Of a stretch of 20,170 bases of DNA, positions 132 through 19,494 are shown in pieces; the stretch's first letter is position 1, and the number at the start of each line of letters is the position of its first letter. A program made the translations under genes and the position numbers. The stretch comes from a virus. The stretch covers positions 1-20,170 of IMG/VR virus record IMGVR_UViG_3300021197_000903; one strand, given 5' to 3'. The notes under the pieces were generated by a model, which worked only from the letters and a program-made list of their open reading frames with translations, was not told the DNA's origin and ran no database searches.

Positions 132-2303
132 ATGGCTAAACGTAAAAAGGTTACCAAAGAAACACTGAAGTCACTGATTGCCGAGGGTATTCGCACAAGT
201 GCTGGGTATCACGGTGGTGAGTTACAGCGTCGACGTGAAAAGGCTCTGGAATATTATTTGTCGTATCCAATGGGTAATGAAGTTGAGGGAAGGTCGGCTG
301 TAATATCGTCTGATGTTATGGATACGGTTGAATCAATGCTTCCAAGTTTGTTAAAACCCTTCACGGGTTCCGGCGAAGTTGTAAAGTTTGCGCCTGTCGG
401 CCCTGAAGACGAGGCAAGTGCCGAGCAAGCAACCAAATATGTAAATCATATATTTTTAAAAGATAACCCTGGAGTGCAATTACTGCACGAAGGTTTTAAA
501 GATGCTTTGCTATCAGGCATTGGCATTTTTAAAACTTATTACGAAAATAAAAAAGACGTCACGACTGAGACGTATGAAAATTTGAGCATGGAAGAAGTAA
601 CACTTCTTTTAGCTGATCCAGAGGTTGAGGCGGTTGAGCATTCCTATGAGGAGCAAATGTCCGCCGAACTGGGGTTATTCGACGGCGATGTGGCTCCCGC
701 TTCAACACCTTCTTTTTCGAGTGGACACTCAGTAAAAATTCGTCGTACAAAAACAAAAGGACGTTGCGTCGTCGAGACAGTTGCACCGGAAGATTTTTAC
801 ATAGAGCGGAAAGCGCGCACTCTCGATGAAGCTAATTTTGTCGCCAGTCGAACTCGTTACACCGCCTCAGATTTAATTGCCCTCGGATATAAGCAAAGTT
901 TAGTCGATCAAATACCGACACTCGATGAAGAAGATTTTACAACTGAAAAATTATTGCGAGAGCAAATCGACGACGCTGATTTTGGTGGCAGTCATACAGG
1001 CGAAGATTCGTATGACCCAACACGTCGTGAGATTTGGCTTTACGATTGTTATTTAAAAGCTGACCGCAACGGCGACGGCATCGCGGAGTGGATACGCGTC
1101 TTAGCTGGTGGTTCCGGCAGTTATCTAATCTTAGATGAAGAAGAAGTTGAAGAGCCGCCATTTTCAACAATTGTTCCCATACCAATGCCACACCGATTTT
1201 TTGGTATGTCGATAGCAGATCAAACTTTTATGATCCAAGATGTAAAAACAAGTTTACTACGTAATTTACTCGACAACATATACTTACAGAATAACCACCG
1301 GACTGAAGTGGTGGAAGGTATGTGTAATATGGACGACTTATTGAATAGTCGCCCTGGAGGAATTGTACGCGTCAAACAGCCAGGCATGGTTAGAGAAATG
1401 ACAGCCGCTCCGGTAGGCGGAGATGTATTATCGGCGTTAGAATATGCAGATCAAATAAAAGAAGTTCGCACTGGCGTTACAAAACATTCTCAGGGACTTG
1501 ATCAGGATTCTTTAAATCCAAACCAAACTGCGACGGGCGTAAAATTAATGCTCAATATGTCGCAACAGCGTATCGAAATGATTGGGCGGTTATTTGCTGA
1601 TGGTGGCGTAAAAGATTTATTTAAAAAGATATTGAAATGCGTTTCAATGCATCAAAACCAAGAGCGCGTAATCCGATTGAATAATCAATGGGTGCCAATG
1701 GATCCACGGAATTGGAATACGGAATACGACGTCACGGTTATGGTTGGTCTTGGTCATGGCAACGACGAAATGCGCGTGTCGGCTTTAACAAATGTCCTCA
1801 ATGCCCAGAAGGAACTTGCGGCAAATATGGGTTTTGACAGTGGGTCAATTGTATCGCGTCAAAATGTTTATTCTGCACTCGTTGACTTAGTTAAAGAAGG
1901 CGGGGTTGAAGCAGAGAAATATTTTACACAACCAGCCCCAGACGGGTCTGACATACCGCCACCAAAACCAGACGCAAACGAAATGTTTATGCAGTCGCAG
2001 ATGAAAATCGAAAACGATAAGCTAATTATAAAACGCGAAGAGATGCAGATCGACCATAGTGAAAAGATGCAAGAGTTACAGGCTGAGATGGAAATTAAAC
2101 AGCAAGAAATGCAATTGAAAGTTATGGAACTGGAGCAAAAACTTGCGATTGAAAGAGAGAAGATTTCTGCGGATATGGAACAAACAGCCGCACAAATCGC
2201 CGCTGATGCTGAAAGCGGTAGTGCAAAACTTGAAGTTGAAGCGAGCTTGGCGAGAGAGAGACTGGAACATCAATCAATTGAAAATGATAAGAGGGTAGAG
2301 TAA
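132..2303 (+). CDS. Portal protein, P22-like family
   Basis: This 723-residue protein should form the dodecameric portal ring at one capsid vertex, through which DNA is packaged and ejected and to which the adaptor binds. Its length is close to that of P22 gp1 (725 aa). Family-typical segments are visible: ETVAPEDFYIERKARTLDEA at about 214-235, the acidic turn DRNGDGIAEW near 310-320, a PHRFFGMSIAD...QDVKTSLLRNLLDN block at about 352-385, and a long helical stretch from about 458 to 500 (LNPNQTATG...). After a Pro-rich hinge near 603-614, residues 615-723 form a Glu/Lys/Gln/Met-rich coiled coil, matching the C-terminal helical barrel or tail of P22-type portals. The ATG directly follows the upstream stop, and the stop overlaps the next start (TAATG). 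An acidic, variable insert lies near 150-200. Identity as portal is firm. Subfamily is inferred from length and order. Confidence 0.93.
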   Translation: MAKRKKVTKETLKSLIAEGIRTSAGYHGGELQRRREKALEYYLSYPMGNEVEGRSAVISSDVMDTVESMLPSLLKPFTGSGEVVKFAPVGPEDEASAEQATKYVNHIFLKDNPGVQLLHEGFKDALLSGIGIFKTYYENKKDVTTETYENLSMEEVTLLLADPEVEAVEHSYEEQMSAELGLFDGDVAPASTPSFSSGHSVKIRRTKTKGRCVVETVAPEDFYIERKARTLDEANFVASRTRYTASDLIALGYKQSLVDQIPTLDEEDFTTEKLLREQIDDADFGGSHTGEDSYDPTRREIWLYDCYLKADRNGDGIAEWIRVLAGGSGSYLILDEEEVEEPPFSTIVPIPMPHRFFGMSIADQTFMIQDVKTSLLRNLLDNIYLQNNHRTEVVEGMCNMDDLLNSRPGGIVRVKQPGMVREMTAAPVGGDVLSALEYADQIKEVRTGVTKHSQGLDQDSLNPNQTATGVKLMLNMSQQRIEMIGRLFADGGVKDLFKKILKCVSMHQNQERVIRLNNQWVPMDPRNWNTEYDVTVMVGLGHGNDEMRVSALTNVLNAQKELAANMGFDSGSIVSRQNVYSALVDLVKEGGVEAEKYFTQPAPDGSDIPPPKPDANEMFMQSQMKIENDKLIIKREEMQIDHSEKMQELQAEMEIKQQEMQLKVMELEQKLAIEREKISADMEQTAAQIAADAESGSAKLEVEASLARERLEHQSIENDKRVE

Positions 2304-3631
2304 TGGGATTGCTAGACGCGTGGAGAACAACACGTCAAAATATTATTGATTCTAAGCCTACCTACAGCCGCATTTTTCCTGCTCAAGATTACTCGGACGG
2401 CGTTTATCGCGGCAATACAAATAATCCAGTTGTCGCGTCAGCTTCTACTGGTGGCATTGTTGGGCAACCCGCTCCTTTTACAAAAAGAAGAATAGACAAC
2501 GGCGGTGGTGGTGGAGATTTTGACGACAACAATACAAGTTTTGTTGATAACGATGTATTCCAAGCTCTAGCCCAAACTGGCGCAGGGGTGCGCGGTGAAG
2601 ATTATGATCGTCCAAATAGTTTTTTTGAATCTTCAAATGCAAATGAAGCTCAACCTAATGTAATCAGTGCTGACCTTAACCAAGATTTAAATGTCCTGAC
2701 TGGCAGAGAAATGTCAGACGCAACACAAAATCCAGATAATAATAGTTTCTCATTAGGTAAAGCTGGAGATTTGGCAACTAATGTCGGTGACTTTGCATTG
2801 AATGCAATAAAAGGTGGGCCAATGGGTACAGCGTATACTATGGCGACAAATGACGCGTTTCCAAGGGAAGCATTGCCAGCGGCGGCGGCTTTAGCAATGG
2901 CTCCGATGGTTATTCCAGGCATGGGTATTTTAGGTACAATTGGCGGTGCTTTAAATAACGCGGGAGCCTACCACGATTTCGGCAATGATCCTGATATTAA
3001 TAGTGCTGGTGGAGAAATTAGTTATCAAAATGGACTAATGTCTGCCCCAACAAATGCACCTGGCGGCTACGTTTATCAAGATGGCGAAAAAAGTAATATA
3101 AATAGCCTTGCCGCAATGGATCCAAATACACCGATAAATGTCGGTGGTGGTGAATATTCTAGCGCGGGTGATTTGTATCAAGGTCTTTCGCAGACTGGTG
3201 CAGGGGTAGAAGGCGAGGATTATAACCGATCTGAATCTTTTGGTGATAGTGACGGTGGCGGTGATAGTGGCGGAACGGTAATTTGTACAGAGCTTCACCG
3301 ACAAAAATTGTTATTAGACAATGTATATGATGTTGATCGAGAAGTTGGATTGTATTTTGAAAAGAACGATCCACTAGTTGTAAAAGGTTATCATTTTTGG
3401 GCAGTGCCTCTTGCAAGGTTAATGTCAAAGTCAAAAATAGTAACTGCACTTGTAAAGCCAATTGCGTTGCCTTGGGCAAATCAAATGTATGCTCAAAAAC
3501 ATAATTTAAAAGCTAACCTGATCGGTAAATTAATGCTTCTAATCGGTGTACCGTTTTGCAGATTTCTCGGAAGTCTTTTAACAAAAATTGAAAAGGTTAC
3601 CTTAAATGACACTAGAACAAGATCGGCATAA
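2303..3631 (+). CDS. Phage protein with internal repeat and conserved C-terminal module, unknown function
   Basis: A 442-residue protein starting on the portal stop (TAATG, with GAGGG upstream at about 2291-2295). Residues 1-80 are polar with a Gly run (DNGGGGGDF). Residues about 172-220 are Ala/Gly/Met-rich and hydrophobic, which could contact membrane. Two copies of a repeat around QTGAGVxGEDYxR lie at 84-107 and 290-313. A Gly/Ser/Asp linker then leads to a distinct module at 327-442 that begins ICTELHRQKLLLDNVYDVDR and contains KGYHFWAVPLARLM and a hydrophobic stretch near 411-433. From memory, an ICTELHRQ-type module occurs at the C-terminus of other phage virion-associated proteins; I do not know its function. 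Lying between portal and scaffold, it is probably a virion or head-assembly protein. The last 26 nt overlap the next gene. Low-complexity linkers suggest a modular fusion. Confidence 0.75.
   Translation: MGLLDAWRTTRQNIIDSKPTYSRIFPAQDYSDGVYRGNTNNPVVASASTGGIVGQPAPFTKRRIDNGGGGGDFDDNNTSFVDNDVFQALAQTGAGVRGEDYDRPNSFFESSNANEAQPNVISADLNQDLNVLTGREMSDATQNPDNNSFSLGKAGDLATNVGDFALNAIKGGPMGTAYTMATNDAFPREALPAAAALAMAPMVIPGMGILGTIGGALNNAGAYHDFGNDPDINSAGGEISYQNGLMSAPTNAPGGYVYQDGEKSNINSLAAMDPNTPINVGGGEYSSAGDLYQGLSQTGAGVEGEDYNRSESFGDSDGGGDSGGTVICTELHRQKLLLDNVYDVDREVGLYFEKNDPLVVKGYHFWAVPLARLMSKSKIVTALVKPIALPWANQMYAQKHNLKANLIGKLMLLIGVPFCRFLGSLLTKIEKVTLNDTRTRSA
2552..2623 (+). repeat. Internal protein repeat, copy 1 (QTGAGVxGEDY)
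   Basis: Codes for residues 84-107 of the 442-aa protein (core QTGAGVRGEDYDR). It aligns without gaps to copy 2, with 16 of 24 residues identical by eye. Many synonymous sites differ at the DNA level, so the duplication is old or selected at the protein level. Confidence 0.7.
3170..3241 (+). repeat. Internal protein repeat, copy 2 (QTGAGVxGEDY)
   Basis: Codes for residues 290-313 of the same protein (core QTGAGVEGEDYNR), exactly 206 residues after copy 1. It lies just before a Gly/Asp-rich linker and the ICTELHRQ module, whereas copy 1 follows the N-terminal low-complexity region. Confidence 0.7.
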
Positions 3632-3869
3632 AGGAAGTTTAGCACGTCAAATTATTGATAATCAGGTTTTCCAAGACGCATTTAAAACAATGGAAAATAA
3701 TCTATTTGATGAGTGGAAAGTTTGCCAAGACCAAACTCAAAGAGAGGCAGTCTGGATCATGTTTCAGATGATGCCAAAGTTTCAATCGATATTAGAAGCG
3801 ACGATTGGTAACGGCGCAGTTGCGTCAAAACAATTAAATGATCTTAACCCCAAGCGAAAAAGGAAATAG
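3606..3869 (+). CDS. Small conserved phage head-region protein, unknown function
   Basis: An 87-residue, mostly helical, charged protein with a basic tail (NPKRKRK). The segment VFQDAFKTMENNLFDEWKVC followed by REAVWIMFQMM resembles small proteins of about 80-100 aa found between portal and capsid genes in many podoviruses and siphoviruses, where a short helical protein carries a terminal aromatic/Met block. No enzymatic motif is visible. It overlaps the upstream gene by 26 nt and ends just before the scaffold gene, so it is expressed with head assembly genes and may be an assembly accessory factor, which is inference from position. Start ATG 3606 has only a modest Shine-Dalgarno (AAGG near 3593), fitting translational coupling from the overlapping gene. 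Confidence 0.75.
   Translation: MTLEQDRHKGSLARQIIDNQVFQDAFKTMENNLFDEWKVCQDQTQREAVWIMFQMMPKFQSILEATIGNGAVASKQLNDLNPKRKRK
3861..3864 (+). promoter_or_regulatory. Ribosome binding site that sets the scaffold start
   Basis: AGGA lies 9 nt before ATG 3874. A longer in-frame start at 3838 exists, but it lies inside the upstream gene and has no comparable site, so 3874 is preferred. Confidence 0.6.
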
Positions 3870-3873
3870 AATT

Positions 3874-4929
3874 ATGGCCGAAGAGACAGTCACACCGGAA
3901 GCACCGGAAACTGTACAGGTAGCGGATGTCGCATCGGCATCCGACGCATTAGAAGGACTTCTAGATTTTGGTGATGAGCCAGAACAACCTGGATCAGATA
4001 GTGCGGATGATCAGCCCAACGAAGCTGTTACCCCAGAAATGGAAACAGAAAAAATTGCGGTTGAAGTTGCCAATGACGACGATGGTGACGAATTACAATC
4101 AGAAGAAGTGGCAGTAGCTCAAGACGACGAAGTTGAGACGCCTGACGCCGATGATCTCTACGAGGTAACTTTACCTGGTGGAGTTAAAGCACAGGTCACA
4201 CTCAACGAATTGTCTAGAGGTTATTCTCGCGAAGCTGATTACACGCGCAAAACGGAAAGTCTAGCGCAACAACGTCGGGAGTTGGCGGCTGAACGCGAAA
4301 GTGTTCAACAAGCCGTCGAAAATGAACGGGCGCAGTATGCTCAAAGTCTCAATCAAATGAGTGAGGCACTCGGCGCACAACTTTCACAAAATCAAAATAT
4401 CGATTGGGATACGTTAAAAGAAGAAGACCCAATTGAGTTTGCAACGCAATGGGCAGACCACCAAAGAAAAAGTGAGCAATTGCGAAACTCTCAGGCGCAG
4501 TTACAGCAAATGAGATATGAGCAGGAGCAACAAGCTAAAAATCAACACGCCGTTCTTTTACAAGAACAAGCGCGAGTTTTATCTGAAGCTATTCCTGAGT
4601 TTCGAGATGAAACAACGGCTGAAAAAATGCGTAACGATATGCGTACTTTTTTAAAGTCAAATTATGGTGGTTTTAACGATACAGAAATTAGCTCGGTAGC
4701 AGATGCGCGTCATGTGCAATTAATTGCTGATGCTATGAAGTGGAGAGGTCTTCAGTCATCTAAAGTAAAAGTTGAAAAGAAGGTTACGTCACTTCCAAAG
4801 GTTGTTAGAGGTTCAGCGCAAAAAACGAAAGTTGATGTCGATCAAGAGCAAGCTATGTCCAAAATGAAACGGGCAAAAGCAAGTGGTCACGTAAATGACG
4901 CGGCTATTGCAATTGCTGATTTAATCTAG
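3874..4929 (+). CDS. Scaffolding-like head assembly protein
   Basis: Using ATG 3874 the protein has 351 residues. Residues 1-92 are strongly acidic (Asp/Glu/Pro/Val-rich). Residues about 93-130 carry a motif familiar from scaffold proteins of marine podoviruses: YEVTLPGG, VTLNELSRGYSREADYTRKT. Residues about 127-240 are Gln/Glu/Arg-rich and predicted coiled coil (QQRRELAAERESVQQAVEN...). The C-terminal third is basic (KVKVEKKVTSLPKVVRG, KMKRAKASGH), a usual property of the capsid-binding end of scaffolds. It sits directly before the major capsid gene, whose ribosome binding site overlaps this stop, the canonical position. It would guide procapsid assembly and leave before or during DNA packaging. 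No protease domain is visible. Role is inferred from position, composition and the GYSREADYTRKT motif. Confidence 0.8.
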   Translation: MAEETVTPEAPETVQVADVASASDALEGLLDFGDEPEQPGSDSADDQPNEAVTPEMETEKIAVEVANDDDGDELQSEEVAVAQDDEVETPDADDLYEVTLPGGVKAQVTLNELSRGYSREADYTRKTESLAQQRRELAAERESVQQAVENERAQYAQSLNQMSEALGAQLSQNQNIDWDTLKEEDPIEFATQWADHQRKSEQLRNSQAQLQQMRYEQEQQAKNQHAVLLQEQARVLSEAIPEFRDETTAEKMRNDMRTFLKSNYGGFNDTEISSVADARHVQLIADAMKWRGLQSSKVKVEKKVTSLPKVVRGSAQKTKVDVDQEQAMSKMKRAKASGHVNDAAIAIADLI

Positions 4930-18393: not shown

Positions 18394-19494
18394 ATGGCCC
18401 TAGCAAAATGTTCAGATGATGAGTTTATTAAACTATTTCAACAACACGGCGCAACTGAGCTAAGTAAAATTTTAGAAACAAGTGTCCGAAGTGTGTTTTC
18501 TCGACGTCGGTCAATTGAAAGTAGAATTGGTTCCAGTCTCAATTCTCCAAACGCTAGTTTAAAAATTTTAGGTGAAAGTACACTTTACGATGCTGAAGGT
18601 GAAGTAAAACTAACCTGGGTAAAAACTACAGCCGACAAAGAAAAACAAGAGCAAATTTTTCGTGATGGCGTTTTGGCAATGTCAGAAAAATTGCCGCGAT
18701 TAAAACCAATTAATTCCCCAGCACAATCGCTACCAGATTTATTAAATTTGTATACCTTAACAGATTTCCATTTGGGGATGCTCGGTGATGACTGGGACAA
18801 TAAAACGGCGGAAGATGTTTTAATAAATTGTTTTTCGGAAATGATCAACAATTCGCCGAAAGCACACACGGCGATTATCTGTCAGCTTGGCGATTTTTTG
18901 CATTCTGATTACCCTGGATTGAGAAGTGAAACACCGTTATCTGGACATTTACTAAATAGCGATGGTGAGCCCCATAATATAATTGCATCGTCAATAAAGT
19001 TATTACGACGAGTTGTAGACGCGTCACTTACTAAACATGAAAACGTCCACGTTATTATGGCGGAGGGCAACCACGACATTACGTCGTCGATTTGGTTGCG
19101 CCATATGTTCGACGCCTTGTATGAAGATAACCCCAGGGTGACGATTGATACAAGTGACCTTCCTTACTACGTCCACCATCACGGCGATACAATGCTTGCT
19201 TTCCATCACGGTCACTTAAAAAAGTTTTCTACTTTGACTTCAGTGTTTGCGGCAACATTCCCAGAAATTTGGGGTAAGACAAAATATCGATACGCTCATT
19301 GCGGTCACCTTCATCACGCCCAGGTCAAAGAAGATATGGGAATGACAGTAACTCAGCATCGAACACTGGCAAGTAAAGATGCTTATTCTAAAAGGCTATC
19401 TTATTTTTCAGAACGAAAAGCAGAATCCACAACCTACCATAAAAAATTTGGTCAAGTCGCATCAAATTATGTAACCCCCGAAATGATTATTTGA
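18394..19494 (+). CDS. Calcineurin-like metallophosphoesterase with N-terminal HTH-like segment
   Basis: This 366-residue protein is predicted to hydrolyse phosphoesters with two metal ions. The metallophosphoesterase motifs are all visible: D124-F-H126 (TDFHLGML), G166-D167 (QLGDFLH), G225-N-H-D228 (AEGNHDI), H271-H272-G-H274 (FHHGHL) and G304-H305-L-H307 (CGHLHH). The early part (about 8-45: DDEFIKLFQQHGATELSKIL, then a basic RSVFSRRRSIESRIG) looks like a helix-turn-helix that could touch DNA or RNA. Similar phage proteins occur near the fibre and lysis genes of many marine phages, mostly without biochemistry. Possible substrates are DNA ends, nucleotides or cyclic signals. The AAGGA at 18380-18384 overlaps the upstream stop. 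Family is firm; substrate is unknown. Confidence 0.85.
   Translation: MALAKCSDDEFIKLFQQHGATELSKILETSVRSVFSRRRSIESRIGSSLNSPNASLKILGESTLYDAEGEVKLTWVKTTADKEKQEQIFRDGVLAMSEKLPRLKPINSPAQSLPDLLNLYTLTDFHLGMLGDDWDNKTAEDVLINCFSEMINNSPKAHTAIICQLGDFLHSDYPGLRSETPLSGHLLNSDGEPHNIIASSIKLLRRVVDASLTKHENVHVIMAEGNHDITSSIWLRHMFDALYEDNPRVTIDTSDLPYYVHHHGDTMLAFHHGHLKKFSTLTSVFAATFPEIWGKTKYRYAHCGHLHHAQVKEDMGMTVTQHRTLASKDAYSKRLSYFSERKAESTTYHKKFGQVASNYVTPEMII

What the first reader, a model, noticed from the sequence alone, without database searches (positions are those of the whole stretch)
2303..3631. Unexplained 442-aa modular protein between portal and scaffold
Podovirus head modules usually run portal-(small genes)-scaffold-capsid. 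Here a large low-complexity protein sits in between, with two copies of a QTGAGVxGEDYxR repeat 206 residues apart and a separate C-terminal module beginning ICTELHRQ. The repeat is conserved at protein level while codons have drifted, suggesting selection. The C-terminal module resembles ends of other phage virion-associated proteins, so the gene may be a fusion delivering that module into the head.
Basis: partly seen in the sequence, partly recalled or inferred. Interest (0 to 1): 0.55.

Follow-up and report, generated by a model that had tools for sequence, protein, structure and literature searches.

The report
Phage protein carrying a bacteriocin-type tail domain
A gene slotted between two structural genes of a probably marine phage encodes a mix-and-match protein whose tail end is an unnamed, swappable domain that bacteria also attach to bacteriocin-like and toxin-like secreted proteins, which hints that some phages carry a borrowed weapon or cell-entry part in their particles.

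Summary
In detail: a 442-aa ORF at 2303-3631, two copies of QTGAGVxGEDYxR 206 residues apart (0 of 200 shuffles as good), and a separate C-terminal domain.

The gene is an accessory cassette. In 44 of 54 distinct portal-scaffold junctions of relatives only one small gene lies there. Eight, the window's clade, carry a protein with a constant N-terminus (M[GS]LLDxWR), a variable body and a swappable end: our module in 3, another module (GDGCVIATH...) in 2, neither in 3.

The module is a ~100-residue helical domain (AlphaFold2 pLDDT 95.6). Pfam, PHROGs, NCBIfam and PDB searches gave no family or solved relative. It is strictly C-terminal; its carriers' N-terminal parts fall into 58 blastp clusters among 86.

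In bacteria the same domain ends double-glycine-leader, microcin-like proteins beside HlyD/ABC exporter genes, with a small membrane protein nearby in 6 of 8 such loci; it also ends an RHS protein and follows Hint domains. It therefore looks like an effector domain of polymorphic-toxin type, delivered from the virion here. A rival is an envelope-docking or uptake domain. Virion location and toxicity are untested.

The parts
132..2303 (+). portal gene upstream of the cassette (723 aa)
   Evidence: 38% identical to HTVC106P gp65; 420 phage records match, several of those listed annotated as portal or head-to-tail connecting protein
2303..3631 (+). the 442-aa modular accessory gene
   Evidence: no counterpart in 44 of 54 distinct portal-scaffold junctions of relatives
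2303..2371 (+). constant N-terminal anchor MGLLDAWRTTRQNIIDSKPTYSR (M[GS]LLDxWRxxRxxII in the clade)
   Evidence: blastp of the window protein against L262, L264, L266, L267 and L268: E 3e-5 to 8e-13 over 22-69 columns at the N-terminus
2573..2611 (+). repeat copy 1, QTGAGVRGEDYDR (residues 91-103)
3191..3229 (+). repeat copy 2, QTGAGVEGEDYNR (residues 297-309)
3230..3277 (+). Ser/Asp/Gly-rich linker (residues 310-325)
   Evidence: sequence; in 71 of 94 distinct viral cases the 15 residues before the module hold 6 or more G/S/D/N
3278..3628 (+). C-terminal module (residues 326-442; conserved core 327-426)
   Evidence: hmmsearch E 1.5e-31; AlphaFold2 pLDDT 95.6; absent from L002-L004
3606..3869 (+). 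small gene (87 aa) whose counterpart directly follows the portal in relatives; overlaps the cassette end by 26 bases
   Evidence: similar to HTVC106P gp64, E 3e-9
3838..4929 (+). scaffold gene
   Evidence: E 2e-29 to the annotated scaffolding protein of phage Venkman
4940..5887 (+). major capsid protein gene
   Evidence: 47-52% identical to the HTVC106P, RHph_I1_23 and Venkman head/major capsid proteins

Best explanation
The gene is an accessory cassette in the head-gene region. SHOWN: it is inserted between the portal gene and the small gene that normally follows it; constant N-terminal anchor, variable body, interchangeable C-terminal domain; the C-terminal domain here belongs to an unnamed, mobile, strictly C-terminal family shared by phages and bacteria. 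INFERRED: the N-terminal anchor docks the protein into the particle (probably at the portal/scaffold side of the procapsid) and the C-terminal module is an effector, delivered to the next host cell at DNA ejection. The module acts on the bacterial envelope, probably the inner membrane, as the same domain would do when bacteria export it through C39-ABC/HlyD machinery or place it at the end of an RHS protein. In a lytic phage it could help ejection, depolarise or weaken the cell or competitors, or modify the host early.
For: Cassette: 8 of 54 distinct junctions have the large gene, 44 only one small gene, 2 an unrelated 190-197 aa gene as well. C-terminal swap on one body: L264 (this module) against L267/L268 (module B), 40-43% identical over 369-377 aligned columns ending at the Gly-rich linker. 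Near-isogenic difference: L002, portal 99.7% identical, lacks the module. Mobility: 58 N-terminal clusters among 86 carriers; phage, exporter-linked and other genome labels need 16 changes on the tree, least possible 2. Terminal position: 0-43 residues after the domain in 97 of 97 distinct stop-ended viral cases, 25 or fewer in 95. Toxin-type contexts: 6 of 37 module-bearing genome stretches lie beside HlyD or ABC exporter genes or pieces of them (L159 by Pfam, L181 and L191 by C39 motif, L180, L183 and L188/L210 by eye), and 4 of the 10 plasmid hits, the 4 opened, have annotated HlyD and peptidase-ABC genes. Double-glycine or GA leaders by eye. Small predicted membrane protein near the module gene in 6 of 8 exporter loci looked at, and one right after the RHS gene of L198 (by eye). 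Control: among representatives, a small membrane ORF within two genes in 4 of 5 exporter-linked genome loci, 3 of 25 other genome loci and 4 of 65 viral loci. Hint domains with CFIAGT-type start and HN end just before the module. The Vibrio protein after its leader is little more than a Gly-rich linker plus the module, so there the module itself must be active if the protein is a toxin.
Against: No assay and no virion proteomics for any member. In L180, L183 and L159 a glycine-rich hydrophobic stretch (Pfam glycine zipper below cut-off in L180; by eye in the others) stands before the module and could be the toxic part, which would make the module an uptake or targeting domain. The module is not transmembrane-like overall: 12 of 88 have a 19-residue window of mean hydropathy 1.6 or more. 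No catalytic set was recognised. The small membrane proteins are only candidate immunity proteins; the Vibrio neighbour has no segment by the criterion used and L181 was not resolved. Some bacterial carriers (LysM, pilin-like) fit adhesion as well. Exporter-linked members are a minority of the genome hits. The exporter label is not clustered on the tree beyond chance (59 of 500 shuffles as low).
Confidence: 0.5

Rival explanations
1. Envelope docking or uptake domain. The module is not itself harmful; it binds a conserved envelope component and brings whatever is fused to it (microcin zipper, RHS, ejection or fiber protein) to or across the membrane, as the C-terminal part of microcin V is thought to do (recalled).
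For: Leader + glycine-rich hydrophobic stretch + linker + module order in L180 and L183; carriers with LysM, pilin-like and tail-fiber-type parts.
Against: The Vibrio protein has no other obvious active part. A Hint domain that would cut the module off, if active, stands before it in three architectures: L039, L069/L077, L156. The phage protein exists without it in L002-L004.
Confidence: 0.3
2. Virion-sorting or tethering tag: the module fixes accessory proteins to the particle and the variable N-terminal parts are the cargo.
For: One copy in 23 of 25 viral records of 12-82 kb searched whole; ART-PolyVal domain N-terminal to it in L052.
Against: The same domain occurs in exporter-linked bacterial proteins with no phage gene annotated in the plasmid stretches shown; at this locus the N-terminus, not the module, is constant.
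Confidence: 0.12
3. Ordinary hypervariable virion protein (host-range or decoration type) whose C-terminus happens to recombine; the bacterial copies are degraded prophage relics.
For: Raised divergence of the gene: dS 0.30 and dN 0.12 against L002, portal dS 0.065. Islands of variation in marine phage genomes have been described (PMC3909814: title and start of abstract seen in the listing only).
Against: The Rhizobium and Vibrio plasmid operons are annotated as ordinary whole genes with no phage gene in the stretch shown.
Confidence: 0.08

Closest known systems
Polymorphic toxin systems (variable C-terminal toxin domains, pretoxin Hint, RHS, immunity)
   Same: strictly C-terminal, mobile, found on RHS and Hint carriers, usually after a Gly/Ser/Asp/Asn-rich linker, small membrane gene near most exporter-linked copies
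   Different: toxicity and immunity untested; most members seen are on phage proteins; no known toxin family matched in Pfam
Class II microcins / C39-ABC exported bacteriocins (PMC9746304, passages read)
   Same: bacterial relatives: double-glycine or GA leader, HlyD, peptidase ABC transporter, small membrane protein nearby
   Different: about 190-250 aa with an extra C-terminal domain; the window protein has no such leader
Phage polyvalent proteins and MuF-effector fusions (PMC5512222, passages read)
   Same: proposed virion-injected multidomain effectors; one carrier of the module has an ART-PolyVal domain
   Different: the window protein has no recognised enzymatic domain; the module matches no Pfam family
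CDI ionophore toxins (PMC11630599, abstract and passages read)
   Same: C-terminal domain of five predicted helices; small hydrophobic immunity partners there, small membrane neighbours here
   Different: this module is basic and mostly amphipathic; no direct sequence or structure comparison was made
CFI-box-CTERM (NCBIfam NF041770)
   Same: C-terminal domain that starts with a Cys motif after a linker, as recalled
   Different: NF041770 matched none of the 4 records tried, two of them module B carriers; no homology shown

Membership tests
Polymorphic toxin C-terminal domain | C-terminal position in every carrier | tested here: met
   tail 0-43 residues in 97 of 97 distinct stop-ended viral modules
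Polymorphic toxin C-terminal domain | attached to many unrelated delivery or trafficking proteins | tested here: met
   58 N-terminal blastp clusters among 86 carriers; RHS, Hint, LysM, DUF4815 carriers
Polymorphic toxin C-terminal domain | cognate immunity gene next to it in bacteria | tested here: inconclusive
   small predicted membrane protein near 6 of 8 exporter loci and after the RHS gene; function untested
Polymorphic toxin C-terminal domain | toxic to cells | not testable with these tools
   needs an expression assay
Class II microcin | double-glycine (GG or GA) leader | tested here: not met
   window protein begins MGLLDAWRTTRQNIIDSKPTY; seen by eye only in bacterial relatives such as L180, L183, L202, L203
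Class II microcin | C39-peptidase ABC transporter and HlyD in the locus | not tested
   no profile scan of the window's other ORFs was made; present in bacterial relatives
Polyvalent protein | several domains of disparate activity in one polypeptide | tested here: not met
   no Pfam family in the window protein; best E 0.13, below cut-off
CDI ionophore toxin | five-helix bundle non-polar enough to span the membrane | tested here: inconclusive
   five helices predicted but only 12 of 88 modules have a hydrophobic 19-residue window; structures not compared directly
Known phage ejection or virion protein families | match to a PHROG family | tested here: not met
   0 PHROG families for the window protein, whole or in two parts, at E up to 1

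The most novel reading that the evidence does not exclude
Marine and other phages carry, in a swappable cassette beside the portal gene and on other virion proteins, an antibacterial domain of the type used in bacterial microcin-like and RHS proteins. The virion thus doubles as a delivery device for a bacteriocin-type effector, and phages and bacteria trade the same new, unnamed domain.
Probability: 0.38. Interest if true: 0.85.

Novelty: new variant of a known kind. Interest (0 to 1): 0.7.

Why it matters
It gives a searchable definition to a widespread uncharacterised domain (134 distinct modules, 97 representatives at 90% identity, from a handful of scans that were not exhaustive) and links phage virion-type proteins with microcin-like operons on Rhizobium and Vibrio plasmids and in Pasteurellaceae. 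It makes two questions testable: what accessory genes beside the portal do, and whether the module protein of Bibersteinia trehalosi takes part in its proximity-dependent inhibition of Mannheimia haemolytica, whose genetic basis was not known in PMC4956465 (2016; whole text read).

Tried and rejected
Repeat as the key: rejected, it is confined to close relatives. Module as a known domain: Pfam, PHROGs and NCBIfam gave no family shared by the members; the best Pfam hit, Nop5_N at E 0.02 in one member, is noise. PDB by sequence: one hit at E 0.7 with A3 and none with A5; Foldseek PDB best E 3.3; the VIA-align second look compared 17 chains, best Z 2.4 over 41 residues, which does not show that the fold is new. 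BFVD returned 8 phage proteins at E below 0.01, none with a function; the top one, S4S2E0, is probably HMO-2011 gp49, judged only by its length of 762 aa. Modules A and B as homologues: hhalign P 0.5, not shown. CFI-box: no match; no paper in the library holds 'CFI-box'. Full-length structure: uninformative. Searches of whole genomes found few members: 1 of 369 and 4 of 385 (two classes), 1 of 399 and 3 of 121 (two families), centre genomes included, so the domain is sparse in bacteria. 'ICTEL' in papers gave 142 papers; the 20 listed were unrelated. Not in print: I searched only, and saw no paper on the module in those listings.

Rows dropped: up to 90 records were offered; those without both a portal and a scaffold hit, and those with identical junction DNA, were left out, and 54 remain. 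In one search, 86 of 95 representatives had 80 or more residues before the module. In one search two of 97 representatives gave no gene (L189, L194). In the genome scan 8 of 45 stretches lacked the module at E below 1e-10.
Full report
WHAT IS THERE. The ORF 2303-3631 (442 aa) begins on the last base of the portal gene and is followed, with a 26-base overlap, by an 87-aa gene, then scaffold and major capsid. The repeat QTGAGVxGEDYxR is real: self-match score 95 at offset 206, while 200 shuffles reached at most 51. It was found only in close relatives and its spacing changes by an indel.

WHICH PHAGE. The portal matches 420 of 50,697 phage records, best Pelagibacter phage HTVC106P (38%), also Venkman and Rhizobium phage RHph_I1_23. 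In those three isolates the portal is followed directly by a 76-98 aa gene, then scaffold and capsid. The window's 87-aa gene matches HTVC106P gp64 (E 3e-9), and its scaffold and capsid match those of the three phages. So the 442-aa gene is extra. That the phage is marine is inferred from its nearest isolates.

A CASSETTE SITE. Scanning viral contigs with a portal alignment kept the best 80 of 440 relatives. With the isolates and earlier loci, 54 distinct junctions could be measured; they differ in DNA but are not independent. Forty-four hold only one small gene (76-106 aa, gap 229-370 bp), two hold an unrelated 190-197 aa gene as well, and eight hold a 348-547 aa protein starting M[GS]LLDxWR. 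Of these eight, three end in the module of the window (window, L261, which is the contig of L001, and L264), two end in a different module, GDGCVIATH... (L267, L268), and three end in neither (L002, L262, L266). L264 and L267/L268 share 40-43% identity over 369-377 aligned columns and then, after a Gly-rich linker, carry different C-terminal domains. L002, whose portal is 99.7% identical to the window's, lacks the module; the DNA resumes at the same point downstream. The gene is also locally diverged: dS 0.30 against L002, with 0.065 for the portal and 0.035 for the scaffold. I read this as recombination at a cassette.

THE MODULE. With five module queries tblastn found it in four of the phages of the 50,697-record collection: HMO-2011, HTVC033P, SynMITS9220M01 and the uncultured MW202481. 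In HMO-2011 and HTVC033P, whose portals are only weakly similar to the window's (E 6e-6 and 7e-6), the carrier also stands between portal and coat genes. A DNA pattern for GYHxWAxP...M hit 104 stretches of viral contigs and an alignment scan returned 43 loci; hmmsearch confirmed the module in all 104 and all 43, and in 153 of the 156 records then held, the misses being L002-L004, with two copies in L096. In 97 of 97 distinct stop-ended cases 0-43 residues follow it. Carriers without their module fall into 58 clusters among 86 (blastp E 1e-5, single linkage). Of 25 viral records (12-82 kb) searched whole, 23 have one copy and two have two.

STRUCTURE AND CONSERVATION. AlphaFold2 with 64 rows gives pLDDT 95.6 and pTM 0.82, five helices. 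In 80%-identity representatives Cys328 is invariant (90 of 90), Gly362 and Tyr363 are invariant (92 of 92), His364, Trp366, Ala367, Pro369, Met374, Gly408 and Gly423 are 93-98%, Cys419 is 87%. Net charge is positive in 83 of 88, median +6; the domain is not transmembrane-like overall. No solved structure was found by sequence or by Foldseek; in the library of viral protein models eight phage proteins scored E below 0.01, the next 0.85.

CARRIERS. Among 56 carriers PHROGs named a DNA ejection protein family twice, tape measure once and tail fiber once; most carriers had no match. Where in those carriers the ejection and tape-measure matches lie was not looked at. Pfam found Hint domains in three (L069, L039, L077), DUF4815 and E1_FCCH in L069, and ART-PolyVal in L052. 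L069 and L077 share the same Hint sequence.

BACTERIAL RELATIVES. The same DNA pattern hit 45 stretches in a collection of one genome for each of 84,980 species; 37 of 45 carry the module at E below 1e-10. Contexts: (a) L159, L180, L181, L183, L191 and L188 (seen as L210) lie near HlyD or ABC-exporter genes or pieces of them. Only L159 was tested with Pfam: Peptidase_C39 E 4.9e-33, HlyD_3 E 2.3e-18; L181 and L191 have the C39-type motif; the others are by eye and partial. (b) Ten plasmids match, eight Rhizobium and two Vibrio; the four opened all show HlyD and a peptidase-domain ABC transporter downstream. In Rhizobium the module gene overlaps by four bases a 63-aa protein with two hydrophobic segments, and an 80-aa peptide with a double-glycine leader follows. 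(c) Leaders, by eye: GG in L180, L183 and the Vibrio protein, GA in L181, L191 and L202, unclear in L159; in L210 and L228 a GG leader lies in another frame than the module. PMC9746304 (passages) states that class II microcin leaders end in GG or GA and that known immunity proteins have 51-216 residues and tend to be membrane proteins. (d) L198 has the module at the end of a 2,169-aa RHS/SpvB protein, followed by a 112-aa gene with hydrophobic segments at its start. (e) L156, an assembly labelled archaeon, has a Hint domain ending HN just before the module. (f) L173 has LysM; L164 begins like a pilin, L175 and L190 like signal peptides, all three by eye. A same-strand ORF of at most 110 aa with a hydrophobic segment lies within two genes in 7 of 30 genome representatives (4 of the 5 exporter-linked, 3 of the other 25) and in 4 of 65 viral ones; some loci are cut short, which lowers all these counts.

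TREE. With 90 module sequences and only 99 columns, phage, exporter-linked and other genome labels need 16 changes; the least possible is 2 and shuffles average 27.7. The exporter-linked members lie within one starred group of 17 that also holds other genome members and two phage modules (L029, L079), so exchange between phages and bacteria is likely, its direction unknown. Some genome contigs may be prophages or viral.

MECHANISM. Shown: accessory cassette, exchangeable C-terminal domain, domain shared with exporter-linked bacterial proteins, RHS and Hint carriers. Inferred: the N-terminal anchor brings the protein into the particle; the module is the active part, acting at the envelope of the next cell. 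The Hint motifs (CFIAGT, HP, HN; motif roles recalled) directly before the module suggest release of the module in some carriers. The strongest counter-argument is the glycine-rich hydrophobic stretch before the module in several bacterial members, which could be the toxic part and would make the module an uptake domain. I give 0.5 to effector, 0.3 to docking or uptake.

SECOND MODULE. The GDGCVIATH module was found at 18 viral loci, C-terminal in the 16 whose end is present, and not in the phage or plasmid collections at E 1e-3. A profile comparison with the first module was not significant.

LITERATURE. PMC5512222 (passages) describes proteins proposed to be injected with phage DNA; PMC11630599 (abstract, passages) describes five-helix ionophore toxins with hydrophobic immunity proteins; PMC9038755 (passages) describes HMO-2011-type genomes, without mention of this gene in the passages seen; PMC4956465 (whole text) reports that B. 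trehalosi inhibits M. haemolytica by a mechanism not yet identified. The link from that phenotype to L180 is a lead only: the strain with the phenotype was not searched here.

Noticed in passing
L267:7839-8189, L268, L343-L360: A second C-terminal module, preceded by a Gly/Asp-rich linker (CVIATH...W[WY]GE...GYR or GYQ), on phage proteins of 409-1402 aa, exchanged with the first module at the same locus.
   Followed up: partly
L180:4390-5028 (Bibersteinia trehalosi DSM 23101): Double-glycine leader plus glycine-rich stretch plus module beside a short ABC-exporter piece and an 86-aa membrane protein; possible link to the unexplained proximity-dependent inhibition of Mannheimia.
   Followed up: partly
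L228/L229 and L210 (Pasteurellaceae): Two module copies about 1.3 kb apart in one genome; leader and module lie in different frames in L210 and L228. Broken or frameshifted, not resolved.
   Followed up: no
L006:2672-4522 (SynMITS9220M01_028): Module preceded by long poly-proline and poly-arginine runs and carrying an extra insertion after the GYxxWA motif.
   Followed up: no
record of L024 (G1306): Two module proteins about 20 kb apart in one 55-kb viral record, an exception to one copy per record.
   Followed up: no
window 18394-19494: ORF with metallophosphoesterase-like motifs (by eye) at the far end of the window.
   Followed up: no
L202:6730-6972 (Rhizobium plasmid pRle248b): 80-aa peptide with a double-glycine leader in the same gene row as the module protein, possibly a second bacteriocin.
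   Followed up: no
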